A stretch of 64,000 nucleotides of DNA from Neochlamydia sp. S13. Lineage in GTDB: Bacteria; Chlamydiota; Chlamydiia; Chlamydiales; Parachlamydiaceae. The position numbers and the translations under genes are program-made. The DNA is taken from the NCBI RefSeq assembly GCF_000648235.2, contig NZ_AP017977.1:1240001-1304000 (forward strand). The letters are read 5' to 3'. The notes beneath the pieces were generated by a model. The model was not told the DNA's origin, ran no database searches, and saw nothing but the letters and a program-made list of their open reading frames with translations. Numbering within the stretch: the stretch's first letter is position 1; each line of letters opens with the position of its first letter. Below, one piece after another: positions 28,101 to 48,916 of this stretch.

Positions 28101-28648
28101 CTAGTAAGCTAAAAAAAGCCTTTATATCCAGAGCGATCTTACCGTAAAGCTCTTTCACTTCTTGAAAAGAAGGAGTTTCTGACAGAAGTTGAATTTTTCC
28201 CTCTATTTCCTCTCTAAACTTTTTTAATGCTTGGCTATTGCCCTTAAATTCTTTTCTTATTCTATTATTATCTAAAACTTTTCCCTGACACACGTTGATA
28301 AGTAAATGTTGAGCTTTCAAAAGCTTTTCTTCAAAAAATTTCTTTCTGTCATCAGAAACAATTTGTAACGCATAATTGTAAAGCCCTGCAGCTTGAAGTA
28401 ATGTTTCGGATGTACCTTTTTCCTGATAAATATCTCCTAGTTTTTCTATACAATATACTTCTTGGACTAGCTTTTCTGCGCAAACTTTTTCGCGCATAGG
28501 GTTATTCTTTTGAATAGCGAGTTTTAAACCTATCTTGAAGATGTCTTCCGCTAAAGTACTGCTTTCAATTAACTGCTTCCATTCTCTACATATGAGTTTG
28601 GCTTGGCACAAATCTTGGAACCCTAATTCCTTAAATATTTTTAAGCTA

Positions 28649-29574
28649 TAGTTATTTGAATTTTATTTTTCTAAGGATGTATGTATAATCAATTGGCATG
28701 GTATATTCACACGATTTAAGAAAAAAAGCTTTGAATTATATAGAGAATGGCGGCTCAATGGCCACAGCTAGTGAGGTGTTTGGTGTAACAGTTCGCACGT
28801 TAACCAACTGGATTAAGCGAAAAAAACAAGGTTGTCTAGCTCCTAAAAAAAGACGACAGAGCCCCAGTAAAATAGATAGTGAAAAGCTAAAATTATATAT
28901 AAAACAAAATCCTGATGCCTACCTTAGGGAAATAGCTGAGGCATTCGGAGTGACGATAACTGCAGTTTTTTATGCCTGTAAAAGACTGAAAATCACTTTA
29001 AAAAAAAGACACCTTTCTACAAGGAAAGGGATGAGAATAAGCGAGAAGAATTTAGACAAAAGCTAGAAAACATTCCGGAAGAAAATAGGATTTACATAGA
29101 TGAGAGCGGGATAAATGCCTACTTACAGCGCCAGCATGCAAGAGCACCTATAGGAGAAAAGATTTATGGTGCTATAGCAGGTCGTTCATTTGCTAGAGAA
29201 AGCTTTATAGCAGCTAAATGCAAGTCTAAAATTTTAGCTCCTTTTTGTTATACAGGTACTTGTAATTCTCTTCTGTTTAACATTTGGCTAGAAAAAATAT
29301 TGATACCTGAACTTAAAGCAGGACAAGTTCTGATAATGGATAATGCTACCTTCCATAAATCGCAAGCCACTGATGAACTTATTAAAAAGGCAGGGTGTGA
29401 GATTTTATTTTTACCGCCTTATTCTCCAGATCTAAACCCTATTGAAACCTTTTGGGCTAATTTTAAAAAGATTGTGGCAGCAAACTTAAGTAAGTTTTCG
29501 ACTCTTGCTCAAACCATTGATTACTCTTTTTTAAGTATATGTTAATGACTAGAAATTTAAAATTTAAACCACTA
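28649..29574 (+). mobile_element. IS630-family insertion sequence with TA target duplication
   Basis: The 926-bp element has imperfect inverted ends TAGTTATTTGAATTTTAT and TAGTGGTTTAAATTTTAA. TA flanks it at 28647-28648 and 29575-29576, as expected for IS630/Tc1 elements. Intact copy 1 has a single TA at the matching place (AAGCTAATTTCTCT), which fixes the insertion point. Confidence 0.9.
28698..29545 (+). CDS. IS630-family transposase, two frames joined at an A8 run
   Basis: Frame one (28698-29066, 122 residues) is the helix-turn-helix half: VYSHDLRKKALNYIENGG and TVRTLTNWIKRKKQG. Frame two, -1, opens at a TTTAAAAAAAAG run near 29000 (KKKTPFYKERDENKREEF) and runs to 29545 with the DDE residues: RIYIDESGINAY, LIMDNATFHKSQATDELI and PPYSPDLNPIETFWANFKK. 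A -1 slip on the A8 run gives one complete protein of about 282 residues. Programmed frameshifting is known in parts of this family. No other damage is visible. Confidence 0.85.
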
Positions 29575-30647: not shown

Positions 30648-32429
30648 TTAAGCCCAGGCATTCGTTTTTACTCTTCTAGGGATGAGAGGAGGAATAAGCC
30701 TTGTGGCTATTTCTACTTGATGTTCTGCCCCCCATTTGCGTAATTTAATACTAGGTAGGATCTCTTCAGCTTGCTTTTCCACAACTTTTAGCTCTTCCTT
30801 AGTAGATGAGGGTAGAGGCTCTGCTAAATTAACAAGAACCTCGACAGATTTATTTAGGATTTCCTCATTCTGCTCTTGCATCTTTTGCTGGAGGCGCAAC
30901 AGATCGAAACGTGCCTGCTCTTTTTTGATAATCTCTCTTTCTAGAATAAGCTGTTTGGCGTAATCTCTTATCTCTTGTTGATGTTGGTCATATAGCCTAT
31001 TTCTATATTCTTGGATAGCCTTCTCTGTAATGCTTCTCATGCGCCTTACAAAATCGCGAGTACTTTCTTGAATGATAAAGGCTTTCACTTTTTGAGGATC
31101 AATCTCCCTTTTAGTCGCTACATTTGCAGTTTGGGAAGAAATCTCAGCATTTTGCTTAGAGTGAGTGATAGGTAGATTTTCCTGTTCTTGCTCAACTTTG
31201 TTATCTTGTTCTTGCGCAAAGATAGTTAAATTGTTAACAGCTAAAATATAAGTGGCATACTGGGTAAATTTTTGCTTAAAAACTTCTAACTCTTCAGGAC
31301 TAAGTTCAACAGCTTTTCCATCAACAAACTTGTGGAAAGTATTTTCCCGTAGAAATTTATCTATAAAGCTACGATGTTCTTTATGACTCAACTTATTTTG
31401 GCTAAGGAACTTTTCTGCTGCCTCCTTAGCACCTACATATTGATCATCTACCTTAACAAACTTATCGGCTAAATGGGAATGTAGATCGGGAAGTAGGCCT
31501 TTAAGCTCTTGTATAGCTTTTAGGTCTGCTTTTCTATTATGCTTTTCTGTAGCAGGAACACTTGCATTTGAAAGGTTTTTCTTTGAAATATTTACAAGAT
31601 TACTAGCATCTAGGGTACCCATATTTTTTATTATTTCTTTACTTTCTTCTGCTTGTAATCTAACTGAAGTAGAAATCTTTAACTGAGGTACGTGAGTAAT
31701 GTCTTCTGTTACCTCCACTAGCTCATTGGCATGGATGTCTTCTATTGTTTTTTCTACAATTGCTTGTTTACCAACATTTTTAGCTTCTTGATGTTCTGCC
31801 ACTTCTGTCTCTTCATTTACTGTGACTTCTTCGATATGTGATTTTACTTCTTCGGCTTTTACTTTTACTTCTTCCCCATTCACTTTTACTTTTTCGACAT
31901 TTACATTTACTTTTTCCTTAATGAAAGTTTCCTTTTCCTGGCTAACTGTTTTTATTTCTTCAACACCAGTTTTCTCTTTTTCCTCTACATCTACCCTGAT
32001 TTCTTGTTGAAAAATTGTTTCTGATTCCATTTCCTCTATTTCATTAACCTCATTAAAATCAAAGGAGGCTTCTTCGAATTCTTCAATAGTATTAGAAGCC
32101 AATTCAAGAACCTTAGTAATTTGTACCGCTTTTGCTTCTGCTACAAAATCTCTTTTCGATTCGGAGGATTGATTAAAGCTAAGAGATAAATTCTCTTGGA
32201 CCTTAATTACATCGTTATCATAAGCAATTGATTGTACGCCTTCTATAGCGTTGAGATAATTTTGCCTTTTAGTCTCTTCAGTGATAGCACTGCTCTGTAG
32301 AAGAGTATCTTTTCCCACTTTATTGCTTTCTAATTTGTTTTTATCCAACTGAGATAAGCTAGAATAGGATTGAGAGGAGAAATGATTGAAGTAAGATCCT
32401 TGATGATTGGTAAAATTCATACTACTCAT
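30648..32429 (-). CDS. 593-residue Glu/Val/Lys-rich coiled-coil protein of unknown function
   Basis: No signal peptide or membrane segment. The first 90 residues are Ser/Asn/Gln-rich. Residues about 140-245 are an acidic low-complexity stretch of short Val-Lys-Val-Glu repeats (EKVNVNVEKVKVNGEEVKVK). Residues 383-408 (FKQKFTQYATYILAVNN, then LTIFAQEQ) match the N-terminal module of the neighbouring tandem paralogues (FKEAFTQYAQYTAAVNN). Residues about 450-530 form a long charged coiled coil, and the basic tail ends RLIPPLIPRRVKTNAWA. It is transcribed away from the array at 32680, from a shared 250-bp region. An effector or structural role is inference. Confidence 0.7.
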   Translation of the reverse strand: MSSMNFTNHQGSYFNHFSSQSYSSLSQLDKNKLESNKVGKDTLLQSSAITEETKRQNYLNAIEGVQSIAYDNDVIKVQENLSLSFNQSSESKRDFVAEAKAVQITKVLELASNTIEEFEEASFDFNEVNEIEEMESETIFQQEIRVDVEEKEKTGVEEIKTVSQEKETFIKEKVNVNVEKVKVNGEEVKVKAEEVKSHIEEVTVNEETEVAEHQEAKNVGKQAIVEKTIEDIHANELVEVTEDITHVPQLKISTSVRLQAEESKEIIKNMGTLDASNLVNISKKNLSNASVPATEKHNRKADLKAIQELKGLLPDLHSHLADKFVKVDDQYVGAKEAAEKFLSQNKLSHKEHRSFIDKFLRENTFHKFVDGKAVELSPEELEVFKQKFTQYATYILAVNNLTIFAQEQDNKVEQEQENLPITHSKQNAEISSQTANVATKREIDPQKVKAFIIQESTRDFVRRMRSITEKAIQEYRNRLYDQHQQEIRDYAKQLILEREIIKKEQARFDLLRLQQKMQEQNEEILNKSVEVLVNLAEPLPSSTKEELKVVEKQAEEILPSIKLRKWGAEHQVEIATRLIPPLIPRRVKTNAWA

Positions 32430-32679
32430 ACAGGTCTCCTAGGAATAATCTTTACTATTTTTATTATACTTTAGGCTTATTTTGATAAGCAACAAATAAT
32501 ATTATTTTTTTGAAAAACAAGGAAATTATTATACATCTATGATTACAAGAAAAGTGGAGAGGTTTTTTTAAATTCCTTTTTTAAATTTTTCTTAAAAATT
32601 CAATAAAGAATTTGTAAGAAATATGGAGAGTTACTATAGTCTTTCTTTGAATCGCTAAACTTTAAACCAAGGAAATTTT

Positions 32680-33510
32680 ATGACTCCCATATCTACTTCT
32701 TCAGCAGAATATAAACAATTTAAAGAAGCATTCACGCAGTATGCTCAATATACTGCCGCGGTTAACAATTTAAGAATTTTTGCTGAAGAACAAGCCACTC
32801 AAAATCTCAGACAATTTGTGGAGGAAAATAAAGAAAGTTATAAAGCCCATCTACAAGAAGAAGCTAAGCAAATCGCAGAAAAAAAAGCAGAGTTAGCCGC
32901 TAAGAGAGTAGATATAGTTGCTAGAAAAGAAGAGTTAGGTGCTAGAAAAGAAGAGTTAGCTGCTAGAAAAGAAGAGTTAGCTGCTAGAGACGACGAGTTA
33001 AGTGTTAAAATAGGACAGTTAAGTGTTAGAGAAGAGCAATTAAGTGCTAACCTACAGCAGTTAGCTACAATACGAATAGAGGCTGAAGCCAAGATTGCAC
33101 AAGCACAAGCTACATTAAAATTTGGATATGTAAAATTATTTTATAGTGTTTTTGGATTGCCCGCGCCTTTGCAAAGTGAAGCTGATAAAATCGATCAAAT
33201 AGCAGCTACTTATTTTCCTAATGGGGAGATTGGAAATATCAATGGACAAGCAACCCTTTTTTCTATCAGCCCGATTGAGAAATATTTAAGTGAATCAAGA
33301 AGTACTATTAGCAAACTTAATCTAACTGCTATTCGCATTATTCATGATCCTAAAAACCTTGTAGAATTTTTACAAAAGCCTGATTGCCCCATCAAATTTA
33401 TTGGGGTGGATGCTCGTCTAAAAGATAGTCTGGAACAGCAAATTGATGAAATTTGCCCTAAAGAAGGTCGTACATTCAAAATAGTATATGTACAGCCGCC
33501 TAAGAAATAG
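32680..33510 (+). CDS. tandem coiled-coil paralogue 1 (subtype A)
   Basis: 276 residues. The N-terminal module MTPISTSSAEYKQFKEAF, then TQYAQYTAAVNNLRIF, is shared by all five paralogues and the divergent 593-residue gene. A coiled coil follows, built of heptads of the KEELAAR type; eight heptads lie between AEKKAEL and the closing LQQL. The C-terminal domain of about 125 residues (FYSVFGLPAPLQSEADKI, TYFPNGEIGNINGQATLFSI, DPKNLVEFLQKPDCPIKFIG, ending VYVQPPKK) is alpha/beta and unrecognised. A good AAGGAAATTTT ribosome binding site precedes the ATG. An intrinsic terminator follows. Confidence 0.78.
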   Translation: MTPISTSSAEYKQFKEAFTQYAQYTAAVNNLRIFAEEQATQNLRQFVEENKESYKAHLQEEAKQIAEKKAELAAKRVDIVARKEELGARKEELAARKEELAARDDELSVKIGQLSVREEQLSANLQQLATIRIEAEAKIAQAQATLKFGYVKLFYSVFGLPAPLQSEADKIDQIAATYFPNGEIGNINGQATLFSISPIEKYLSESRSTISKLNLTAIRIIHDPKNLVEFLQKPDCPIKFIGVDARLKDSLEQQIDEICPKEGRTFKIVYVQPPKK

Positions 33511-33523
33511 ATTTTTTAGTTAA

Positions 33524-33555
33524 TACCCCTTCCTAGCAAACTTAAGGAAGGGGTA
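33524..33555 (+). terminator. intrinsic terminator after paralogue 1
   Basis: TACCCCTTCCT (33524-33534) pairs perfectly with AGGAAGGGGTA (33545-33555) around a 10-base loop, 14 bases after the stop. The same hairpin follows paralogue 4. Confidence 0.8.
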
Positions 33556-33877
33556 TATTACCTCTTTCCTCATCCTTCATATAGCAAGGCGATCAAGTTA
33601 AAGTCCTTGGTGATTAGTACAATCCAAATATTCACACGCGTCCCCTAAGATGAATACTTTAAGCCTATTTTGATAAGCAATCAATAATACACTGTAAAGC
33701 GACATTTTTTTGAAAAGTGTTAATACTCTTAAACATTAATAAGCTTGAAGGGGGCTAGAAATGTTTCTATTAAGGTTTTCTTAATATTTGGTAAAGGTTC
33801 AATAAACATGTGTAAGAAATATAGAGAGCTATTATAGTCATTCTTTGAATCGCAAAACTTTAAACCAAGGAAATTTT

Positions 33878-34732
33878 ATGACCCCCATATCTACTTCTTC
33901 AGCAGAATATAAACAATTTAAAGAAGCATTTACGCAATATGCTCAATATACCGCAGCAGTTAACAATTTAAGGATTTTTGTTGAAGAAAACAAAGAAAGT
34001 TATAAAGCACATCTACAAGAAGAAGCTAAGCAAATCGCAGAAAAAAAAGCAGAGTTAGCCGCTGAAAGAGTAGATATAGTTGCTAGGAAAGAAGGGCTAG
34101 CTGCTAAAAAAGGAGAGTTAGCTGCTAAAAGAGTAGATATAGTTGCTAGGAAAGAAGAGTTAGCTGCTAAAAAAGGAGAGTTAGCTGCTAAAAAAGGAGA
34201 GTTAGCTGCTAGAAAAGAACAATTGAATACTAGAGAAGCAGAGTTAGGCGCTACACTAGAACAGTTAGCTAACATGCGAATAGATGCGGAGATTAAGCTT
34301 GCTCAGGCAGAAGCAAAAATAGAAAGAGGAAGAGCATTATCCAAATTGGCAGATGTAAGGGTTTTTTGCACTGCTTTAGGCTTACCCCAACCTCAAGAAA
34401 ATGATTTAGAAAGAATCAATCAAATCGCTTCAACTTATTTTCCCAATGGAGAAATTGGTGATATTAATGGGCAAATAACTCTTTTTTCTATGAGTCCTAT
34501 TGAAAAATTTATTGCAGAAACAGGAAGCACTACCAACAAGCTTAATTTTACTCCTATCCGTATTGTTCATGATCCTAAAAACCTGGTAGAATTTTTACAA
34601 AAGCCTGGTTGCCCTATCAAATTTTTAGGCTTTGACGCTCGTATTAAAGATACCTTGGAACAACAACTAGATGCAGTTTGCCCTAGAGAAGGCCGAACAT
34701 TTAAAATAATGTATGTAGCACCCAAGAAATAA
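33878..34732 (+). CDS. tandem coiled-coil paralogue 2 (subtype B)
   Basis: 284 residues from the ATG of MTPISTSS. The frame also opens 33 bases earlier at a TTG, but the ATG at the conserved AAGGAAATTTT site is used in all copies. The coiled coil has ten heptads before the closing LEQL, the most in the array, with the pair RVDIVAR/KEELAAK repeated twice. The C-terminal domain is subtype B: VFCTALGLPQPQENDLERIN, MSPIEKFIAETGSTTNKLNF, ending MYVAPKK. It lacks the ATQNLRQF insert present in subtype A copies. Function unknown. Confidence 0.78.
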   Translation: MTPISTSSAEYKQFKEAFTQYAQYTAAVNNLRIFVEENKESYKAHLQEEAKQIAEKKAELAAERVDIVARKEGLAAKKGELAAKRVDIVARKEELAAKKGELAAKKGELAARKEQLNTREAELGATLEQLANMRIDAEIKLAQAEAKIERGRALSKLADVRVFCTALGLPQPQENDLERINQIASTYFPNGEIGDINGQITLFSMSPIEKFIAETGSTTNKLNFTPIRIVHDPKNLVEFLQKPGCPIKFLGFDARIKDTLEQQLDAVCPREGRTFKIMYVAPKK

Positions 34733-34765
34733 TTTTTTCATTTATATTTTCTCTTAAGAAGATAA

Positions 34766-34798
34766 GGAGGAGGTAGGAGTATTTTTCCTTTCTCCTCC
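34766..34798 (+). terminator. intrinsic terminator after paralogue 2
   Basis: GGAGGAGGTAGGA (34766-34778) pairs with TCCTTTCTCCTCC (34786-34798), 11 of 13 positions, around GTATTTT. Subtype B genes share this hairpin. Confidence 0.72.
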
Positions 34799-35099
34799 CA
34801 TCTTTACCACCACGCGATCAAGTTAAAATTCTTGGAGACTAATAAAATCCAAATATTCTCATACGTCCCCTAAGATAAACACTTTAAGCCTATTTTGATA
34901 AGCAATCAATAATATACTGTAGAGTGACATTTTTTGAAAATGTTAATACTCTTAAACATTAACAAGATTGAAGTGGTTAAAAATGTTTCTATTAAGGGTT
35001 TCTCAATATTTGGTAAAGGTTCAATAAACATGTGTAAAAAATATAGAGAGTTATTATAGTCATTCTTTGAATTGCCAAACTTTAAACCAAGGAAATTTT

Positions 35100-35870
35100 A
35101 TGACTCCCATATCTCCTTCTTCAGCAGAATATAAACAATTCAAAGAAGCATTTACGCAATATGCTCAATATACCGCGGCAGTTAACAATTTAAGAATTTT
35201 TGTTGAAGAAAATAAAGAAAGTTATAAAGCACATCTACAAGAAGAAGCTAAGCAAATCGCAGAAAAAAAAGCAGAGTTAGCCGCTAAGAGGGTAGATATA
35301 GCTGCTAGAAAAGAAGAGTTAGCAGCTAGAAAAGAAGACATAGCTGCTAGAAGAGAACAGTTGAAGGCTACAGCAGAACAATTAGATAAAGAACGTGAAG
35401 ATGCGGAAATAAAGCTTGCTCAGGCAGAAGCAAAAGTAGAAAGAGGTAGAGCATTACAAGAAAAAGGAAGAGCATTATCCAAATTGGCAGATGTAAGAGT
35501 TTTTTGCACTGCTTTAGGCTTACCCCAACCTCAAGAAAATGATTTAGAAAGAATCAATCAAATCGCTTCGGATTATTTTCCTAATGGAGAAATTGGTGAT
35601 ATTAATGGACAAATAACTCTTTTTTCTATGAGCCCTATTGAAAAATTTATTGCAGAAACAGGAAGCACTACCAACAAGCTTAATTTTACTCCTATCCGTA
35701 TTGTTCATGATCCTAAAAACCTGGTAGAATTTTTACAAAAGCCTGATTGCCGTATCAAATTTTTAGGCTTTGACGCTCGTATTAAAGATACCTTGGAACA
35801 GCAACTAGATGCAGTTTGCCCTAAAGAAGGTCGAACATTTAAAATAATGTATGTAGCACCCAAGAAATAA
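35100..35870 (+). CDS. tandem coiled-coil paralogue 3 (subtype B)
   Basis: 256 residues from the ATG of MTPISPSS. Only five heptads lie before AEQL. The segment AKVERGRALQEKGRALSKLA has an internal GRAL duplication that is also in paralogue 5 but not in paralogue 2. The C-terminal domain is subtype B and almost the same as in paralogues 2 and 5. The upstream 280 bases match those of paralogues 2, 4 and 5, so all are probably driven by the same promoter type. Confidence 0.78.
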   Translation: MTPISPSSAEYKQFKEAFTQYAQYTAAVNNLRIFVEENKESYKAHLQEEAKQIAEKKAELAAKRVDIAARKEELAARKEDIAARREQLKATAEQLDKEREDAEIKLAQAEAKVERGRALQEKGRALSKLADVRVFCTALGLPQPQENDLERINQIASDYFPNGEIGDINGQITLFSMSPIEKFIAETGSTTNKLNFTPIRIVHDPKNLVEFLQKPDCRIKFLGFDARIKDTLEQQLDAVCPKEGRTFKIMYVAPKK

Positions 35871-35904
35871 TATTTTTTAATTAGTATTTTCTCTTAAGAA
35901 GTTA

Positions 35905-35939
35905 GGGAGGAGGCAGGAGTATTTTTTCTTTCTCCTCCC
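35905..35939 (+). terminator. intrinsic terminator after paralogue 3
   Basis: GGGAGGAGGCAGGAG pairs with TTTCTCCTCCC around a T-rich loop. It is the subtype B hairpin. Confidence 0.68.
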
Positions 35940-36245
35940 ATCTTCACAAACACGCCATCAAGTTAAAGTTCTTGGAGATTAATAAAATTCAAATATTCAT
36001 CCCCGTCCCTTGTTATAAACATTTTAAGCCTATTTTGATAAGCAATGGATAATACACTGGGTAGAGTGACATTTTTTTGAAAAGTGTTAATAATCTTAAA
36101 CATTCACAAGCTTGGAAGGGGTTAAAAATGTTTCTATTAAGGTTTTCTTAATATGGGGTAAAGATTCTATAATAAATTTGTAAGAAATATAAAGAGTTAT
36201 TATAGTCTTTCTTTGAATCGCTAAACTTTAAAACAAGGAAATTTT

Positions 36246-37034
36246 ATGACCCCCATATCCACTTCTTCATCAGAATATAAACAATTTAAAGAATCATTTA
36301 CCCAGTATGCTCAATATACGGCGGCAGTTAACAATTTAAAAACTTTTGTTGAAGAACAAGCTACTCAAAATCTCAGACAATTTGTTGAAGAAAACAAAGA
36401 AAGTTATAAAACACATCTCCAAGAAGAAGCTAAGCAAATTGCAGAAAAAAAAGCAGCATTGGCCGCTAGAATGGTAGATATATCTGCTAGAAAAGAACAG
36501 TTAGCTGCTAGGAAAGGAGAGTTAGCTGCTAGAAAAGAACAATTGAATACTAGAGAAGAAGAGTTAGACGCTACACTGGAGCAGTTAGCTAAAACACGAA
36601 TAGAGGCTGAAGCCAAGATTGCGCAGGCACAAACTGCCTTAAAATCGGAATACGTAAAAGTATTTTATAGTGTTTTTGGATTGCCCGCGCCTTCGCAAAG
36701 TGAAACTGATAAAATCGATCAAATAGCAGCTACTTATTTTCCTAATGGTGAGATTGGAAATATTAATGGACAAGCAACCCTTTTTTCTATCAGCCCAATT
36801 GAGAAATATTTAAGTGAATCAAGAAGTACTATTAGCAAACTTAATCTTACTGCTATTCGCATTATCCATGATCCTAAAAACCTTGTAGAATTTCTACAAA
36901 AGCCTGGTTGCCCCATCAAATTTATTGGAGTCGATGCCCGCCTTAAAGATAGCCTAGAGCAGCAAATTGATGAAATTTGCCCTAAAGAAGGCCGTACATT
37001 CAAAATAGTATATGTACAGCCGCCGAAGAAATAG
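36246..37034 (+). CDS. tandem coiled-coil paralogue 4 (subtype A)
   Basis: 262 residues. N-terminal module MTPISTSSSEYKQFKESF with the ATQNLRQFVEENKESYK insert shared only with paralogue 1. Six heptads lie before LEQL; one of them (KEQLNTR) matches paralogue 2 rather than paralogue 1, which suggests recombination inside the coiled coil. The C-terminal domain is subtype A (FYSVFGLPAPSQSETDKIDQ, ending VYVQPPKK) and very close to paralogue 1. The hairpin of paralogue 1 also follows this gene. Confidence 0.78.
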   Translation: MTPISTSSSEYKQFKESFTQYAQYTAAVNNLKTFVEEQATQNLRQFVEENKESYKTHLQEEAKQIAEKKAALAARMVDISARKEQLAARKGELAARKEQLNTREEELDATLEQLAKTRIEAEAKIAQAQTALKSEYVKVFYSVFGLPAPSQSETDKIDQIAATYFPNGEIGNINGQATLFSISPIEKYLSESRSTISKLNLTAIRIIHDPKNLVEFLQKPGCPIKFIGVDARLKDSLEQQIDEICPKEGRTFKIVYVQPPKK

Positions 37035-37047
37035 ATTCTTTAGTTAA

Positions 37048-37079
37048 TACCCCTTCCTAGTAAACTTAAGGAAGGGGTG
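37048..37079 (+). terminator. intrinsic terminator after paralogue 4
   Basis: TACCCCTTCCT (37048-37058) pairs with AGGAAGGGGTG (37069-37079). It is the same hairpin as after paralogue 1, with one G-T pair. Confidence 0.78.
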
Positions 37080-38090
37080 TATTACCTCTTTCCTCATCCT
37101 TCATATAGCAAGGCGATCAAGTTAAAGTCCTTGGTGATCAGTACAATCCAAATATTCACACACGTCCCCTAAGATAAATACTTTAAGCCTATTTTGATAA
37201 GCAATCAATAATACACTGTAGAGTGACATTTTTTTGAAAAGTGTTAATACTCTTAAACATTAACAAGCTTGAAGGCGGTAAAAATTTTTCTATTAAGGTT
37301 TTCTTAATATTTGGTAAAGATTCAATAAACATGTGTAAGAAATATAGAGAGTTACTATAGTCTTTCTTTGAATCGCTAAACTTTAAACCAAGGAAATTTT
37401 ATGACTCCCATATCTACTTCTTCAGCAGAATATAAACAATTTAAAGAAGCATTTACGCAATATGCTCAATATACCGCGGCAGTTAACAATTTAAGAATTT
37501 TTGTTGAAGAAAATAAAGAAAGTTATAAAGTGTCATCCGTCATGGTTAGTGACCCAGGGTCGGCAGTTTTAGTGACCCACCCCCTCGTCACCTTTAGTGA
37601 CCCACCCTAGCTACCAAATATTTTTTCTTTATTTCTCTTAAACTGCATAAATCTTCATGGGACAATCTTTTTTTACCTTGTCTCGAAAAGGAGATTTTAT
37701 GCCAAGGAAGAGAAATATGATAGAATTACAACAAGTCATTTTTCGACTAAAATTAAAGCAAAGCATTCGCTCTATTAATCGCGATACCGGTATTCATCGT
37801 ACGATTATCCGTAATCTCAATAAAGTTGCAAACAACAGCGGGTGGCTATCTAACGATAGATCTATCCCTTCTGAGAATGAAATTCACCAGGCTCTCGTCG
37901 CTTTTAATTTAAAAAAATCTTCAAAATCGCATGACTTAGATCCTTTTAAACCTTTAATTAAAGACTGGTTAGCAAAAGACCATAGTTTTGTGGTCATTCA
38001 TAAGCTTATTCAAGAGCACATCACGTGCAGTGAATCAACTGTACGAAGATTCATTCATCAACACTTTCCTAAACAAATTCAACCTATAAT

Positions 38091-39004
38091 AGACCTCTTT
38101 CGAAACTGGAATAAAATGTAAATTTTAGTAAAATGGTGACTCAACATTTAAAGGAGGCACCATGAAATTTGATAAGATAGAGAAATTAGATGATGAACGC
38201 TTTCGCAGATTGACAGGGGTAAAGCGTAATACCTTTGATAAGATGGTGCAAATTTTACAGCAAGCTGATATGGCCAAGAAGAGTAAAGGCGGGCGTAAAT
38301 ATAAACTACGTTTAGAAGATATGCTGTTAATGACCTTGGAATATATACGAGAATATAGAACCTATTTCCATATTAGCCAAAGTTATGGAATCAGTGAAAG
38401 CTCAGCTTATAAAGCGGTGAAATGGATTGAAGATACGCTAATCAAGCATCCAGATTTTGCTTTACCGGGACGTAAAGAGCTTTTGAAAAGCGATACAGAA
38501 TATGAGGTTATTTTGGTTGATGCTACAGAAACGCCTATTGAGCGCCCTAAAAAAAACAAAAGCGCTATTATTCAGGGAAAAAGAAAAAACATACCCTAAA
38601 GACCCAAGTTGTAGTCGATAAGAAGAGTAAAAAAGTAATATGTACCTCATATGGCAATGGCAAAAAGCATGATTTTAGGCTATTCAAAGAATCCCAAGTT
38701 AAAATCAATCCACAAATAAAAGTATTAACCGATTCAGGTTATCAAGGATTAAAAAAGCTGCATATTCACACCCAGATGCCCAAGAAAAAAAGTAAGAAGA
38801 AGCCTTTAACTAAAGAGGATAAAAGAACAAATCAAAGTTTATCCAGAGAAAGAGTTGCCAATGAAAACGTCATTGGCCTCCTTAAGCGATTTAAAATTAT
38901 AGCAGATCGCTACAGAAATAGACGTAAAAGATTTGCCCTTCGCTTCAACTTAATTGCAGCAATCTATAACTGGGAATTAAATGAGTGAGTTTCGAAAGAG
39001 GTCT
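38091..39004 (+). mobile_element. IS5-family insertion sequence inside istA, 3-bp target duplication
   Basis: 914 bp with perfect 17-base inverted ends (AGACCTCTTTCGAAACT), flanked by AAT at 38088-38090 and 39005-39007. Excision restores istA. Confidence 0.9.
38162..38988 (+). CDS. IS5-family DDE transposase, two frames joined at an A8 run
   Basis: Frame one (38162-38599) has the helix-turn-helix part (YFHISQSYGISESSAYKAVK) and the first catalytic Asp in EVILVDATETPIERPKK. At CCTAAAAAAAAC (around 38550) a -1 shift leads into KKQKRYYSGKKKKHTLKTQV, the normal IS5 sequence. It continues to 38988 with VLTDSGYQGLKKLH (second Asp) and SRERVANENVIGLLKRFKI (Glu). Frameshifted IS5 transposases are known. 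The product would be about 275 residues. Ribosome binding site AAAGGAGGCACC lies before the ATG. Confidence 0.85.
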
Positions 39005-40269
39005 AATGATCAGACAGCATATTCCCGGTGAATGTGCGGAAGTAGATTTTGGTTATCTAGGTTTATGTTTTGACCCTGACAGTGGTAAAAATCGTCGCGC
39101 TTGGGTCTTTTCTTTAAGGCTTCGCCACTCACGCAAAGCCTATCGTGAAGTTGTTTTTGATCAGAGCACTAAAACGTTTTTAGCCTGTCATATCCATGCT
39201 TTTGAATGGCTAGGTGGAGTACCTACAAAAATTGTTATCGATAATCTAAAAGCTGGGGTAACAAAAGCTTCTTTGCATGAACCTTTACTCAACAGATCTT
39301 ATCAGCAATTAGCAGAACACTATGCATTCATCATCAGCCCTTGCCTTCCTTACAAGCCTCAACATAAAGGTGGGGTAGAAAACGACATCAAATACATCAA
39401 GAGAAATTTCCTTTCCTTTTTCTTAGAAAGTCAAGCACAAAAAGGCATCGAAGTGCCTTCTAAAGGTGATTTTCAGAAAGCTCTTGACCAATGGAATTGC
39501 GAGGTTTCTGAAAAACGCAAAATTGGGGGTGTTGATCGTACCCCTCAAGATCTTTTTGAAGAAGAAAAGGAGCATTTAAAATCCCTTCCAAGTTGCCGTT
39601 GGGATGCTTTGGAATGGTATTGTACAATGGTAGGAAAAGACTGGAGAGTGCGCTTTGATAAAGTTTGGTATTCGGTTCCTTATGCTTTTATAGGCAAAGA
39701 AGTACAAGTTTGTGCTAGTCAAAGCTCTCTTAAAATTTTCCATGCAGGCCAAGAAATTGCTATGCATTTACGTTCATATAAGCTTAATGATTACGTCAGG
39801 GCAAATTTACATGCCCCTTTGCAGCAAGAAGAAGTGCTTAATGCCACCCGAGGCGGATTACTAGCTCAAGCAGAAACCATAGGCCCTTTTACCTTAAAGT
39901 TAAGTGAAGAGCTTCTTAATGATCCTTCTCACGATAAATTAAGGCCAGTTAGATTAATTTTAAAGTTTGCCTTACGCTATAGCCCTGATAGATTAGAGAA
40001 AGCCTGCCAGCGAGCTCTTATCTACGGTACTATTTCTTATACCAGCATAAAAGCGATCTTAGAAAAAGCTTTAGATCAAAAGCCCTTTGAAGAGCAATCT
40101 ACCCAATTAGATAAACCGCAAAAGTATTTTAAATTCGCTAGAGACCCACAATATTTTACCCAAGGAGCTATGTATGGATGAAATGATTTTGCTTAAATCA
40201 AAACTTAACAAGCTTAAATTGCCTAAATTGTTGGAAACGCTTCAGGAACGTTTAAAACAGGCTATAAAA

Positions 40270-40497
40270 GAAAAATGGTCTTATTCGCAGTTTTTGGACA
40301 TATTGCTTACGGATGAAATGGATCGTCGTAATCAAAGTCAGTTTGCAAAAAAGCTCGTGAAAAGCCATCTACAAGTCAATAAGACATTAGAAACTTTTGA
40401 TTTTTCATTTAACACAAAGATTTATGAGCCTATCCTTAAAGAATTAGCGACATGTCATTTTGTAGAGAATAAAGAATGCGTGCTAATCATCGGCCCC
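40270..40497 (+). repeat. left copy of the 228-bp target duplication of the IS1634-like element
   Basis: Identical to 42438-42665, from GAAAAATGGTC to CGGCCCC. Both copies are istB coding sequence. IS1634-family elements are known for long, variable target duplications. Confidence 0.9.
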
Positions 40498-42437
40498 CTG
40501 ACTTCAACACTTTTTTGCGTAAGTATCTGATTATGAAAATCCCCAAAATTTCTATAGGCACTACATTGGAAAGAAAGTAAAGATAAGGAGCTAATTTAAG
40601 GCTTATGAAATTTAGGCTTAGAGGAAATGAGCTTGTAAGGGGTTGTGGAATATTTTAACCCCATGACTTGATAAATCTTTAAGCCATGGTTACTAGCTTT
40701 TGAGGGGATCACGTAGCGCTGTCCATTTTTATCTTTCAAAATGCTGGATTGAATTCTAATTAGCTCTTGACGAATAGCTTCAGGTGACATTTTCTCATAT
40801 TGTAAGGCTACCCGATATTCAAGATGCCTTACGCAACAAAAGGCTATAAAAGATAGGGCAAGATGAGCTTTTACTCTCTCAGGCGTCCAATGAAATATAG
40901 GTCTGACTTTAAGATCATGTTTAGTGATTCGGAAAGATTCTTCTACTTGCCAAAGACCGCGGTAGTGTTCTAACAGCTCGTGGGGTGATAAGTGTTTGGC
41001 ATTGGTAATTATTCCATGCAGCCCATCCCACTGAGCCTCTTCTTGTAGTTTTTTCTCATTTAAAGATATTTGTGACTGCCCTTTAAAATTTAAATATTTC
41101 TTGTAACCGTAATTTGAAATAAATGCTTGGCACTTTTTGCTTTTCTTTAGCTTCTCTATTAACTTGTTAAGAGCTTTTTCTCGATCATAAGCATCTTTTT
41201 TCGCTCTAGAGGCATTATGGGTAACAATTAGACGATGATCCTCATCTAAGTAAATAGCAGTAAGGCGTGTTTGACCATTTTCAGGATAGGTTGCATAAGC
41301 ATTTAAATCTAAAATCTTCTTCTTAATCTCTGTTTTTTGATTTTTTAGGCGTGCTCCAATAATATACTCATATTTTGCTTGCTCAAGTGCTAAAAGATTA
41401 GCGCTATTTAAAATGCCACTATCGCCTACAAATATCACTTTATCTAGCTGATAGTTGGCTTTAACCTTTTCTAAAATAGGCATAAGAGTATGCCCTTCAT
41501 AGGTTGATCCTGGAAAAGCCTGGTATCCAATAGGCATGCCTTGTTTAGTTACCATTAAGGAAATTAAGACTTGAGGCTGATTGAATTTAAGGTCTTTGCT
41601 ATAACCATTTTGCTTAAATTCATCTTCTTGGAAAGACTCAAAATAAAGGGTATTAGCGTCAAAAAAAATCAGATCGATTTTTTGTCCAAATAATTCTTTG
41701 GCTGTATTGTAAGCACAATCCTGTATAGCTTGCTGAGCCTGTTGATTTAAACAATCCATCATCCTATAAACACCTTGCAAGTTGATTTGTATCCCAAAGT
41801 CTTGCTCTAATTGCCTAACAGAAGCTCTTTTGCTAACAGGATTAGCAATGCGGGCCATGACAATGTGTTTTAATATTTCTGCACTTGAAGTGTTTTTAAG
41901 AATATTTCCAAAACCTAGCTCTTCATAGATTTTTCCATAAATCTCATGAATGCCCACGATAGCACGCTGTTCTTCTTCTAGGTTTTTAAGGTTAACGTTT
42001 AGCTCCTCATCGTTTAGCTTTGACATGTTTTTTGATTTAATCGCTTGCTGAGCCATTTCTTCAGGACCAAAAAGAGTGGGATCGTGTTGGTGTTCTATCT
42101 TGCTCTTGATATGTTCCGCTAGCTCAACCATTTTTTTAAGTTCTTGCTCGTCCATAGCAATCCCGACATAGCGGACGATTCTTTGTTTAACTTTTTCTCC
42201 ATCGCGCACCGATTCAACAATCTGCACAGATTTTCTGGGGCTATTAGGTGTGGTTTTTACTCTGACAAACATAAAAATAAGCTATAAGTTTTCTTGCAAT
42301 ATAAAAGATTTCTAAAAATAAAGCAAGATAAATGTTTTACTAGGCACTACAAACTAGAAAACAGAAAAATCAGGAGTGTTCTCCTAGGAAAATTTGAAAA
42401 GCTTTATCACTTTTTGAGGTTAAAATGTTGAAGTCAG
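40498..42437 (-). mobile_element. IS1634-family insertion sequence inside istB
   Basis: 1940 bp with inverted ends CTGACTTCAACA. It is flanked by 228-bp direct repeats (40270-40497 and 42438-42665) and carries one intact transposase gene on the minus strand. Confidence 0.88.
40596..42272 (-). CDS. IS1634-family transposase
   Basis: 558 residues, apparently intact. The N-terminus MFVRVKTTPNSPRKSVQIVE and VKQRIVRYVGIAMDEQEL is typical of IS1634/IS4-superfamily transposases. DLIFFDANTLYFES carries the first Asp and DKVIFVGDSGILNSANLLAL the second; HYRGLWQVEESFRITKHDLK is the Y-(2)-R-(3)-E-(6)-K motif with the catalytic Glu. Of the transposases in this window this one alone has a single open frame, so it may still be able to move itself. 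Confidence 0.9.
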   Translation of the reverse strand: MFVRVKTTPNSPRKSVQIVESVRDGEKVKQRIVRYVGIAMDEQELKKMVELAEHIKSKIEHQHDPTLFGPEEMAQQAIKSKNMSKLNDEELNVNLKNLEEEQRAIVGIHEIYGKIYEELGFGNILKNTSSAEILKHIVMARIANPVSKRASVRQLEQDFGIQINLQGVYRMMDCLNQQAQQAIQDCAYNTAKELFGQKIDLIFFDANTLYFESFQEDEFKQNGYSKDLKFNQPQVLISLMVTKQGMPIGYQAFPGSTYEGHTLMPILEKVKANYQLDKVIFVGDSGILNSANLLALEQAKYEYIIGARLKNQKTEIKKKILDLNAYATYPENGQTRLTAIYLDEDHRLIVTHNASRAKKDAYDREKALNKLIEKLKKSKKCQAFISNYGYKKYLNFKGQSQISLNEKKLQEEAQWDGLHGIITNAKHLSPHELLEHYRGLWQVEESFRITKHDLKVRPIFHWTPERVKAHLALSFIAFCCVRHLEYRVALQYEKMSPEAIRQELIRIQSSILKDKNGQRYVIPSKASNHGLKIYQVMGLKYSTTPYKLISSKPKFHKP

Positions 42438-42665
42438 GAAAAATGGTCTTATTCGCAGTTTTTGGACATATTGCTTACGGATGAAATGGATCGTCGTAAT
42501 CAAAGTCAGTTTGCAAAAAAGCTCGTGAAAAGCCATCTACAAGTCAATAAGACATTAGAAACTTTTGATTTTTCATTTAACACAAAGATTTATGAGCCTA
42601 TCCTTAAAGAATTAGCGACATGTCATTTTGTAGAGAATAAAGAATGCGTGCTAATCATCGGCCCC
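42438..42665 (+). repeat. right copy of the 228-bp target duplication of the IS1634-like element
   Basis: Exact match to 40270-40497. The lack of differences suggests a recent insertion. Confidence 0.9.
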
Positions 42666-43861
42666 AGTGGAGTAGGAAAGAGCCATCTTGCCCAATCGAT
42701 AGGCCATGAAGCTATTAGAAAAGGCTATGAGGTGCTTTTCTATAGAACATACCAGCTTTTTTATTGGATATCTATCGGCCATGGAGATGGGAGCTATAGA
42801 AAAAGACTACAGCAGGTCATTAAAGTGCCTTTATTAATTTTAGATGATTTTGGGTTACAATCGCTTAGTGAAGCCAGTCAAATGGATCTTTATGAAGTGA
42901 TTTGTGAAAGATATGAGAAGGCTGCCACGATTATTACCAGCAATAGAGAATTTGGAGAGTGGCAGGAAATATTCGCCAATCCATTAATAGGTAGTGCAGC
43001 ACTAGATCGTTTGATTCACAGAGCCACAAAGCTTGTGATTGAAGGAAAAAGTTATCGTATGGAACAATTCCATAAAAGATCAAAACAAAATAAAGAAACC
43101 GAGAAGTAAAGAAAAAATCCAAGCTAGGGTGGGTCACTAAAGGTGACGAGGGGGTGGGTCACTAAAACTGCCGACCCTGGGTCACCAACCATGACGGATG
43201 ACATAAAGCACATCTACAAGAAGAAGCTAAGCAAATCGCAGAAAAAAAAGCAGAGTTAACCGCTAAAAGGGTAGATATAGCTGCTAGAAAAGAAGAGTTA
43301 GCTGCTAGAAGAGAACAGTTGAAGGCTACATCAGAACAATTAGATAAAGAACGTGAGGATGCGGAGATAAAGCTTGCTCAAGCAGAAGCAAAAATAGAAA
43401 GAGGAAGAGCTTTACAAGAGAAAGGAAGAGCATTATCCAAATTGGCAGATGTAAGGGTCTTTTGCACGGCTTTAGGCTTACCACAACCTCAAGAAAATGA
43501 TTTAGAAAGAATTAATCAAATCGCTTCAACTTATTTTCCCCATGGAGAAATTGGTGATATTAATGGGCAAATAACTCTTTTTTCTATGAGTCCTATTGAA
43601 AAATTTATTGCAGAAACAGGAAGCACTACCAACAAGCTTAATTTTACTCCTATCCGTATTGTTCATGATCCTAAAAACCTGGTAGAATTTTTACAAAAGC
43701 CTGGTTGCCGTATCAAATTTTTAGGCTTTGACGCTCGTATTAAAGATACCTTGGAACAGCAATTAGATGCAGTTTGCCCTAAAGAAGGTCGAACATTTAA
43801 AATAATGTATGTAGCACCCAAGAAATAATATTTTTTAATTAGTATCTTCTCTTAAGAACCT

Positions 43862-44758: not shown

Positions 44759-45910
44759 CTATAATGTGCTCGTGGCACACAAAAGCTTTGCTTTCAAATA
44801 CCTAATTCGGACATAAGCACTTCTACACCATAAGGAAATAAATTTACTTACAGTTTTCAAAGGATAGAAGATAAACCTCTTAAAAAAGACTTTCAAGCGA
44901 GAATTTTTTTTGATGTTTTTTAAGCTATGAGAATCTTTAGGCTGTGCTTGAACGCCTATTTTTTTTCTAGTTATTTGATTGAAATTACTAATCTTTTTTT
45001 CTTGTGACCTACTACTACTTTCAAGGTGCAGGCATTTCTCGTAAGAAATATTATTTTCTTCCCCCTGCTTCGTATGATACAAAACTATTTGACAGCCCCA
45101 TTCTTCTATACTTGGCTCTCCCTTAAGGTTATGTTTTACCTCATCCGTATGGAAAATTGTGAAGCCTGCATAGCCCCATTCACTAATTTTTTTATTAATT
45201 AAGATTCTTAATTCATTCAGTTGTTGATAAATTTTTTCTTCGTTAGAGGTTTTAAACCTACTAGGAAGCATTGACGGAAATAGAGAAGATGAAGAGGATT
45301 GATTTCTAAAACCAATTAATGTAGCCATTTTGTTGATAGGAATACCGTAATACTCCCCTGTCTTCATACAAATACTTATGGATGCATAGCCATGGAGTTC
45401 TTTAAAACGTTCAAAATATCCAATTAAGCCAAATAATGGCACCTGAGGCTCATTGTATTCAATATCGCCAGATAAATAAGTTTTATTAGAAGGAATTGTA
45501 CTAATTTTATGGAGTTTATCTATGTCTCTTTGTAATAGAACACTAGCGCCTAGAGGCATCTTGATACAAAGCTCATCAAACTCAGCTTCCATCTCCTGGA
45601 GAGATCTTTGTTTAGTGAGATCAGGATGGTTAGCTACTACATGTCTAACGTGAAGTAAAGCATTTTCTGCTTTTTTTACTAGTTCGCTATATTCAATGGC
45701 TGTAATATCATCCCTTACCTTTATAGCGATCTGATGATAATGATTAAAAAGAGCAAAATTTTCTTCAAAGACCTTCATTGCTGTAGCATGAGTTGGCTGG
45801 ACTAAAGCTCTATTGTCTGCTTGTACGGCAGAAATGGATAGAGAGTTATCTTTAGGAGAAAGCTGATCAAGATTATTCTTAAGGCATCTATTATCCGGGT
45901 TTACATTCAT
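44759..45910 (-). CDS. unknown protein, family also found at 50210-51787
   Basis: 383 residues, no signal peptide. Residues about 65-205 match the C-terminal half of the 525-residue protein at 50210: IKMPLGASVLLQRDIDKLHK against IPLGNSIVLRKDIEMMRTIS, then a (Y/N)EPQ motif, a Y-x-S-I-(C/R) strand and TLIG. The first 40 residues are polar. The C-terminal 60 residues are very basic with short hydrophobic stretches (FFKRFIFYPLKTVSKFISLW), possibly a membrane- or nucleic-acid-binding tail. No known domain is recognised. A group II intron lies immediately downstream. Confidence 0.7.
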   Translation of the reverse strand: MNVNPDNRCLKNNLDQLSPKDNSLSISAVQADNRALVQPTHATAMKVFEENFALFNHYHQIAIKVRDDITAIEYSELVKKAENALLHVRHVVANHPDLTKQRSLQEMEAEFDELCIKMPLGASVLLQRDIDKLHKISTIPSNKTYLSGDIEYNEPQVPLFGLIGYFERFKELHGYASISICMKTGEYYGIPINKMATLIGFRNQSSSSSLFPSMLPSRFKTSNEEKIYQQLNELRILINKKISEWGYAGFTIFHTDEVKHNLKGEPSIEEWGCQIVLYHTKQGEENNISYEKCLHLESSSRSQEKKISNFNQITRKKIGVQAQPKDSHSLKNIKKNSRLKVFFKRFIFYPLKTVSKFISLWCRSAYVRIRYLKAKLLCATSTL

Positions 45911-47351: not shown

Positions 47352-47859
47352 TCTTTGCTGCTCTTGGAGCCGCTCACTTCAACTTCCGTCCTATTACTTT
47401 AAATGGCGACAGGGCTTCAAGCTTCTCAGCTTTTAACACTTCTTTCCTTTATCTTTATCACAAATGTCAGATTACGTCCTAATCTATTACACTTTAAGGA
47501 TAGTTTTTGACCATCTGTTTCTTCTATTGCTCTTTCCAATTAGTGGTTTGGCGTGGCTTTTAAACAATATTTTGTGCCATTCAACTTTAAATTATCTACA
47601 AGAATCATCTACCTAGCAAAAAATGGAAATTAATAAGTGAATATCTTTTTCAATCATTTTAACCTTACAACTTTGTTTTTTTTGTAGGTAAAAAATGCTT
47701 TTAAGCCATCTGGAGGCCTTTTCTCAGCTATTTCCTTATCCGATAACTCGCATCGATTAATTTATAGATCTTTTTTCCTAGCAAGATTGTGTCTTAGAAA
47801 AAAATCAATCGCAGCTTTTTCTCATTGCCCAATAATGCTTTTAACTTTATAGAAAATGA

Positions 47860-47888
47860 TTGACAGGTTGCGGAAAAAATCTTATATA
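47860..47888 (+). promoter_or_regulatory. near-consensus sigma70-type promoter in repeat copy 1
   Basis: TTGACA (47860-47865), a 17-base spacer and TATATA (47883-47888). The -35 box and spacing are ideal. No gene follows directly; the next promoter lies 178 bases on. Confidence 0.6.
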
Positions 47889-48037
47889 GCTAATGTTTTG
47901 GATTGTAATAAAAATTTTAACTATTAGATCAAAACAAGGTAAAAGGCACCTAAGATTAAGACTATTGTGTCTTAGAAAAAAATCAATCGCAGCTTTTTCT
48001 CATTGCCCAATAATGCTTTTAGCTTTATGGAAAATGA

Positions 48038-48066
48038 TTGACAGGTTGTGAAAAAAATCTTATATA
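48038..48066 (+). promoter_or_regulatory. near-consensus sigma70-type promoter in repeat copy 2
   Basis: TTGACA (48038-48043), a 17-base spacer and TATATA (48061-48066). A transcript would start near 48073 and run toward 48917, possibly as a small RNA or a long leader. Confidence 0.6.
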
Positions 48067-48916
48067 GCTAATGTTTTGGATTGTAATAAAAATTTTAACT
48101 GTTAGATCAAAACAAGGTAAAAAGCGCCTAAGATTAAGACTGGAGATAGTTTTTACTTCTTACCTCAATAAGCGACAGCAAAGTAAGCATTTAGTCTAAT
48201 ATATAAAAATAGGCTTGCAAAGCCAAAACCTTATGTAGCTACCATGAATTTCAAAGAGGTAAATACTTAAAAATATATAAAGCATAAACAAACAGAAGCT
48301 TATTACTGGATCAGGAAAGGTACATGAATTTCTTAGCAGTGTTGTTTTTCGAACTATTTCGCATCACCTAAGCTTGCTTTTCCTTCCAGGGGCTTCTTAA
48401 TAATAATTACCCAAATTCTTTAAATGCAAATTAGCAAATAAAGTTAAAGCAGCATAAATACCTTTTTATGGAAAGAGGATTAAGAAAGAGAAAAACTATC
48501 ATTCCACGAACAAATGGGCATAAAGCTTAAAGAGCTGTAAGAGCAACATTTTTTACAGTTATTAAAGAGGGATAATGTTGTAGAGCTGTAGGAATGTTCC
48601 TGAAATTGAAAAAGGTTATGAAAAAGTTATAGAAAATATGCAAGATTTGTTGGAATTATTCCTTTCGGTAGTGGTATTAAATAAAAAAGAATAAGGCATA
48701 ACAAAAGAACTGTAAAATTTATTTGTCTAAGGTCTGGGATGCTAATATTTTATATTTCAAATAATGATTTATTTATACGCGGCACAAAGAAAACTAAAGT
48801 AATCCGAAAAGTGTTACAAGGCAGGAAAACATATGAGTTTTTAAGTAAATATAGTTGGTTATTTATCAAAAAAAATAAATATTAGTTCACTATTCAGACG
48901 ATTAAAAAGGAAAAAT

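What the first reader, a model, noticed from the sequence alone, without database searches (positions are those of the whole stretch)
32680..43828. Five tandem coiled-coil paralogues that differ by whole heptads
All five share the same N-terminal module and C-terminal domain, but the coiled coil between them has 8, 10, 5, 6 and 4 heptads, encoded by near-identical 21-base units. Each gain or loss keeps both the reading frame and the coiled-coil register. This looks like a locus set up to vary rod length by slippage or recombination, comparable to variable surface or effector arrays. The family is unknown to me.
Basis: partly seen in the sequence, partly recalled or inferred. Interest (0 to 1): 0.8.

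Follow-up and report, generated by a model that had tools for sequence, protein, structure and literature searches.

The report
Recombining heptad-rod gene array in Parachlamydiaceae
An amoeba-dwelling relative of Chlamydia carries a row of near-duplicate genes for helical rod proteins of different length; the rods grow, shrink and are cut and re-joined by DNA recombination while both ends stay strictly conserved, and one of the five copies is broken by a mobile element.

Summary
The array is real, but the "five genes" are four intact genes plus one broken one. The fifth copy is split by a 5.7 kb IS21-type element (5-bp target duplication TAAAG) that itself carries two further transposase genes. 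The relative unit counts are right: every copy, and both whole relatives in a sister species, holds a whole number of heptads (9 to 15 by one fixed rule). A 12-residue indel in the N-terminal module is the one change that is not a heptad.

The window is from Parachlamydiaceae. The tail domain occurs in 8 of 234 Chlamydiota genomes (a ninth hit is weak). Each gene is head-to-head with a fast-evolving partner gene wherever the context is readable. The tail matches no Pfam or NCBIfam model; its last 60 residues look like two 28-residue RI-like leucine-rich repeats. Copy 4 is a mosaic with its breakpoint inside the rod. An orthologous copy in the sister species differs by two heptads. Termini are under strong purifying selection, and no membrane segment is predicted.

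So rod length varies over evolutionary time by unequal recombination or slippage. Nothing shows a fast, programmed or surface-antigen switch. The nearest known parallel is Mycoplasma pneumoniae RepMP1/DUF16. The function, host-directed binding, is inferred.

The parts
30648..32429 (-). Partner gene (593 aa), head-to-head with the array; acidic, Ser/Asn-rich N-terminus, own short 21-bp heptad array (31814-31916), and a segment homologous to the N module of the copies
   Evidence: orthologue in G001 82% identical; a divergent gene sits in the same place in all eight genomes
32680..33510 (+). Copy 1 (276 aa, tail type A, 12 heptads)
32881..33132 (+). Heptad rod of copy 1 (12 units of 21 bp)
33878..34732 (+). 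Copy 2 (284 aa, tail type B, 15 heptads, with a 63-bp internal duplication)
34043..34357 (+). Heptad rod of copy 2 (15 units)
35100..35870 (+). Copy 3 (256 aa, tail type B, 11 heptads)
35265..35495 (+). Heptad rod of copy 3 (11 units)
36246..37034 (+). Copy 4 (262 aa, 10 heptads); mosaic: B-like 5' flank and rod, A-type tail and 3' flank
36447..36656 (+). Heptad rod of copy 4 (10 units)
36575..36593 (+). Recombination breakpoint in copy 4, within the rod
   Evidence: max chi-square 141.9 and 134.5, 0/5000 permutations each
37401..37530 (+). Copy 5, N-terminal fragment (43 codons), cut by the IS
37526..37530 (.). Left target-site duplication TAAAG
   Evidence: read
37531..43203 (.). IS21-type element with long terminal inverted repeats (TGTCATCCGTCATGG...), carrying istA/istB pieces and two nested transposase genes
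   Evidence: rve + Mu-transpos_C_2; IstB_IS21 E 1.7e-64
38162..38599 (+). Transposase ORF (HTH_Tnp_4) nested within the istA region
40596..42272 (-). Transposase (DDE_Tnp_1) nested in istB
43204..43208 (.). Right target-site duplication TAAAG
   Evidence: read
43204..43828 (+). Copy 5, remainder (10 heptads and a type B tail), without its own promoter or start region
43244..43453 (+). Heptad rod of the copy 5 remainder (10 units)
32612..32640 (+). Conserved promoter-like site TTGTAA-17-TATAGT upstream of copy 1; the same block precedes all five window copies and the two G001:C15 copies
   Evidence: the scan alone is not above chance; the support is conservation
44759..45910 (-). Downstream gene (383 aa) whose homologue lies beside the same gene pair in G002
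   Evidence: 30% identity over 273 aa, E 1.8e-39; synteny

Best explanation
This is a birth-and-death tandem family of soluble rod proteins restricted, as far as searched, to Parachlamydiaceae. Each protein has a conserved N-terminal helix module, an alpha-helical rod of 21-bp/heptad units, and a C-terminal domain ending in what looks like two 28-residue RI-like leucine-rich repeats. Copies arose by tandem duplication; the rod is the place where unequal recombination and slippage add or remove whole heptads and where one copy's front has been joined to another's tail. Selection keeps both ends nearly unchanged and tolerates only frame- and register-preserving length changes in the rod. Function (inferred): both ends bind partners and the rod is a spacer. 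The most likely setting is the host side of this obligate amoeba symbiont, as secreted proteins working with the head-to-head partner gene product. Shown: architecture, relatives, conserved gene pair, mosaicism, heptad differences between species, purifying selection, IS disruption. Inferred: LRR fold, secretion, partner binding, spacer role.
For: Relatives with the same tail in 8 Parachlamydiaceae genomes of five genera, one on the mobilizable plasmid pPNK of Ca. Protochlamydia naegleriophila. Head-to-head with a second gene wherever the contig allows. Exact heptad counts in all copies and orthologues. A separate 21-bp array of another heptad in the G005 homologue (6.1 copies, 93%) and another in its partner gene. 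Mosaic copy 4. Strong purifying selection. LRR: all 18 PDB profile hits are NLRP-family chains, best E 2.5e-4, and a 28-residue strand spacing recurs in the family; RI-like, NOD-type 28-residue LRRs are known in Protochlamydia (PMC2216083). No membrane segment.
Against: No secretion or host-target evidence could be obtained. The LRR match rests on sums over repeats (best single-domain E about 1), no Pfam LRR model hits, and AlphaFold2 gives a poor tail model (pLDDT 58, pTM 0.51) with no PDB fold match. The partner proteins are too divergent for their homology to be shown outside the sister-species pair by sequence alone.
Confidence: 0.55

Rival explanations
1. Contingency locus: rod length is actively varied by slippage to change a surface or effector property within populations.
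For: Perfect adjacent 21-bp units exist (two identical units in copies 1 and 2), and orthologues differ by 2 heptads between species.
Against: Arrays are imperfect overall (about 75% match); unit changes keep the frame, so there is no on/off switch; proteins lack membrane segments; termini are conserved by purifying selection. No within-clone data.
Confidence: 0.12
2. Neutral by-product: rods are loosely constrained spacers and the length differences have no function; copies persist only by duplication.
For: IS insertion in copy 5, degraded copies in G031 and G001, a dispersed G001 copy lacking the promoter block, and absence from G003 of the same genus.
Against: Termini evolve under strong purifying selection and the copies keep a conserved promoter-like block. 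This argues against neutrality of the genes, but not of rod length itself.
Confidence: 0.25
3. Bacterial-side structural or regulatory proteins (for example a cytoskeletal or secretion-apparatus accessory) rather than host-directed proteins.
For: One homologue (G032) lies about 0.8 kb from a secretin-like gene (secretin identity from my reading of the sequence); soluble rods resemble bacterial coiled-coil proteins only generically (SMC/Rad50 hits).
Against: Patchy distribution, absence from most of the family, fast turnover, plasmid location and LRR-like tails are more typical of accessory host-interaction genes.
Confidence: 0.2

Closest known systems
Mycoplasma pneumoniae RepMP1 / DUF16 gene family (PMC3472980)
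   Same: Multigene family with a shared proximal module and a distal coil of 21-nt/7-aa tandem repeats; repeat number differs between strains by whole heptads; recombination has fused the front of one gene to the back of another.
   Different: No sequence relation found (no DUF16 hit). In DUF16 proteins the coil is the distal domain, whereas here a conserved LRR-like tail follows the rod. Here the genes are one tandem array head-to-head with a partner gene, and IS elements are involved.
Plasmodium vivax MSP3 family (PMC3662707, PMC7335089; abstracts only)
   Same: Head-to-tail multigene cluster of coiled-coil proteins with diverse repeat regions.
   Different: Eukaryotic merozoite surface proteins described as polymorphic; here no surface signal and strong purifying selection on both ends.
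Parachlamydiaceae NEX/PEX expansions and LGR proteins (PMC4209131, PMC2216083)
   Same: Lineage-specific tandem duplications in the same bacterial family; LGRs carry 28-residue RI-like, NOD-like LRRs; an F-box/TPR gene lies next to this array.
   Different: No F-box, BTB or RING domain found here and only about two LRR units; not recognised by Pfam LRR models.

Membership tests
RepMP1/DUF16 | Match to the DUF16 family | tested here: not met
   Pfam scan at E<=1
RepMP1/DUF16 | 21-nt tandem units coding heptads inside a helical rod | tested here: met
RepMP1/DUF16 | Whole-heptad differences between strains of one species | not testable with these tools
   Only a sister species was available; copy 1 and its orthologue differ by 2 heptads
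RI-like leucine-rich repeat | About 28-residue spacing of LxxLxL-like strands | tested here: met
   28/28 in copies 1 and 2 and G031; 26-31 in the others (by motifs chosen by eye)
RI-like leucine-rich repeat | Match to a curated LRR model | tested here: not met
   No Pfam LRR hit among 12 members
RI-like leucine-rich repeat | Horseshoe (beta-alpha) fold | tested here: inconclusive
   E100-104, H105-118, E127-131 in a low-confidence model; PDB profile hits only to NLRP chains; no significant Foldseek match
Canonical coiled coil | Hydrophobic 3-4 (a/d) periodicity | tested here: inconclusive
   Window copies: 201-649 of 1000 shuffles reach the observed 3.5 power; G005 homologue: 1 of 1000
Phase-variable contingency locus | Repeat changes that switch expression or frame | tested here: not met
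   21-bp units keep the frame
Type III secreted effector | Secretion into the host cell | not testable with these tools
   No secretion predictor or data; a Ser/Thr/Asn-rich start is only a lead
Chlamydial Inc or surface protein | Hydrophobic membrane segments | tested here: not met
   Highest 19-residue Kyte-Doolittle mean in window copies 0.98; in the family 1.69 (G031), still without a clear membrane helix

The most novel reading that the evidence does not exclude
The array is a modular, length-adjustable bridge: a fixed N-terminal docking module (also present in the partner protein) is coupled by a heptad rod to exchangeable LRR-like tails, and the rod's repeats serve as the recombination joint at which spacer length and tail type are re-assorted without breaking frame or register.
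Probability: 0.22. Interest if true: 0.7.

Novelty: new variant of a known kind. Interest (0 to 1): 0.42.

Why it matters
It shows, in an obligate intracellular lineage, how proteins can be remodelled from repeats alone: whole-heptad changes are invisible to frame and register, so a rod can act both as a spacer and as a safe recombination joint. It also defines an undescribed protein family with a conserved divergent partner gene, including one member on a mobilizable plasmid, that can be tested in amoeba symbionts.

Tried and rejected
Two genome-contig scans found no relatives; the genome search did. A degenerate DNA pattern for the heptad was badly framed, matching not even the window, and is discarded. 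Pfam and NCBIfam hits to ATG14, HAUS, SMC, Rad50 and others are coil-composition matches far below cut-off and were rejected. Foldseek hits for the tail model are not significant. Pairwise sequence comparison of the partner proteins across genera found no homology; only position and acidic, Ser/Asn-rich composition link them. Promoter and terminator scans are not above chance; only conservation of the upstream block is used. The G136 hit (E 0.0018) is treated as unproven. The idea that shared N modules reflect gene conversion alone was dropped: synonymous divergence is about 0.4 with no amino-acid change between copies 1 and 2, which points to selection.
Full report
WHERE IT IS. The window is G000:C1:1240001-1304000 of a 2.8 Mb, two-contig genome. 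Its family is Parachlamydiaceae: a genome placed in the same family (G106) carries a homologue on plasmid pPNK of Ca. Protochlamydia naegleriophila KNic, whose taxonomy line reads Parachlamydiaceae.

THE OBSERVATION. Four intact same-strand genes and one broken one form the array. The fifth copy is cut after 43 codons by an element with long inverted ends (TGTCATCCGTCATGG...) flanked by a 5-bp direct repeat TAAAG (37526-37530, 43204-43208). It contains rve/Mu-C and IstB_IS21 proteins, and thus is of IS21 type, with a DDE_Tnp_1 transposase nested in istB and an HTH_Tnp_4 ORF within the istA region. From the first KK unit to the start of the tail, the rods are 84, 105, 77, 70 and 70 residues, that is 12, 15, 11, 10 and 10 heptads. 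The two whole sister-species copies have 10 and 9. In 400 kb sampled from the rest of the genome only 6 arrays have an exact 21-bp period, two of them one array sequence that looks like a transposase repeat. The exception to "all changes are heptads" is a 12-residue insertion (AEEQATQNLRQF in copy 1, VEEQATQNLRQF in copy 4), also present in two G001 copies; it does not follow tail type.

HOW THE LENGTHS ARISE. Copy 2 holds a 63-bp duplication (three heptads, 90% match). Copy 1 and its orthologue in G001, next to the orthologous partner gene and 96% identical in the tail, differ by exactly two heptads. Copy 4 has 300 bp of 5' flank 86-88% identical to copies 2, 3 and 5 but only 69% to copy 1, while its tail and 3' flank are 95-96% identical to copy 1. 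A max chi-square test puts the breakpoint at 36575-36593, within the rod, with 0 of 5000 permutations reaching the observed value. Thus tandem duplication, heptad gain and loss, and front-to-tail joining inside the rod have all occurred. The rate is unknown.

SELECTION. Tail dN/dS is 0.06-0.18 among close paralogues and orthologues and about 0.2 between types A and B. The N module shows dN 0 at dS about 0.4 for copy 1 against copy 2 and for copy 2 against the G001 type B copy. The partner gene has dN/dS 0.20 overall. This is purifying selection at both ends, not antigenic diversification. A block with TTGTAA or GTGTAA, 17 bases and TATAGT followed by an AAGGA-like site is conserved upstream of all five window copies and of both G001:C15 copies; the dispersed G001 copy has lost it.

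FAMILY AND NEIGHBOURHOOD. Profile searches find the tail in 8 of 234 Chlamydiota genomes at strong E-values, all in the same family, plus one weak hit. G003 of the same genus lacks it. In every genome whose contig is long enough, a divergent gene starts head-to-head with the tail gene. The partner proteins are unrecognisable by pairwise search across genera, but share acidic stretches and Ser/Asn-rich starts. In this genus the partner contains a stretch homologous to the N module (E about 1e-5), so the two products share a module. A separate 21-bp array of another heptad (IEESKNI) occupies the rod of the G005 homologue, and another array lies in its partner gene. The G001 partner is shorter by 14 residues in its own heptad stretch (aligned ends 246 against 232).

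WHAT THE PARTS ARE. AlphaFold2 gives one helix over residues 9-143. Within the rod the seven-residue period is strong, but in the window copies only one Leu/Ile stripe plus Ala is present; a canonical a/d core is not shown, so a dimeric coiled coil remains an assumption. The tail matches no curated model. A profile of 12 members, searched against PDB sequences, hits 18 chains, all NLRP-family proteins and in their LRR regions where the alignments were inspected (best E 2.5e-4). Reading the family alignment, LxxLxL-like strands recur at 28 and 28 residues in copies 1 and 2 and G031, and at 26 to 31 in the others. RI-like, NOD-type 28-residue LRRs are known in Protochlamydia (PMC2216083). I take the last 60 residues as a small RI-like LRR cap, likely but unproven; the structural model is too poor to decide. 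No membrane segment is present.

FUNCTION. The most likely reading is a soluble two-ended binder with a spacer between, working with the partner protein, probably host-directed given the patchy distribution, plasmid carriage, turnover and LRR-like end. That last step is inference. A bacterial-side role is the main rival for location, and neutrality of rod length the main rival for the length variation.

COMPARISON. It works like M. pneumoniae RepMP1/DUF16 (PMC3472980), where 21-nt units change by whole heptads between strains and a recombination fused two genes, but it is not a member: no DUF16 match, and a conserved tail follows the rod. Tandem expansions are typical of Parachlamydiaceae (PMC4209131).

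Noticed in passing
window 25115-29066: A TPR gene beside the array appears broken: its orthologue in G001 (L027:4342-8130) is one 1263-aa F-box/TPR protein with a DUF294 domain, whereas here it is split into shorter ORFs with an IS630-type transposase ORF at 28698-29066.
   Followed up: partly
L057:12092-12857 and 14299-14941 (pPNK): Large 21-bp-based arrays with higher-order periods of 126, 147 and 189 bp lie near the family member on the Protochlamydia plasmid, where two hypothetical proteins of about 620-650 aa are annotated.
   Followed up: no
L027:1-459 and L028:1-672 (G001): A second G001 copy ends abnormally in its rod near a contig end, and a rod remnant with a type B tail begins near another contig end; a copy is probably disrupted by a mobile element there too.
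   Followed up: no
L009:1411-1872 (G000:C1:129653): A separate 154-aa protein resembles the end of the N module plus the rod (E 2.9e-5) and ends without the tail domain.
   Followed up: no
L059:2695-2738 (G011): Two tandem tail-domain genes; one begins with a long Asn run coded by a perfect 44-bp trinucleotide (ATT/AAT) array, a better candidate for fast slippage than the 21-bp units.
   Followed up: no
L030 (G031:C1:2431314) and L060 (G031:C1:1551721): Degraded tail-domain copies, one about 5 kb from the intact gene, showing loss of former copies.
   Followed up: no
window 47786-48141: Two 178-bp direct tandem copies, 96% identical, in a stretch where no ORF of 150 aa or more is listed.
   Followed up: no
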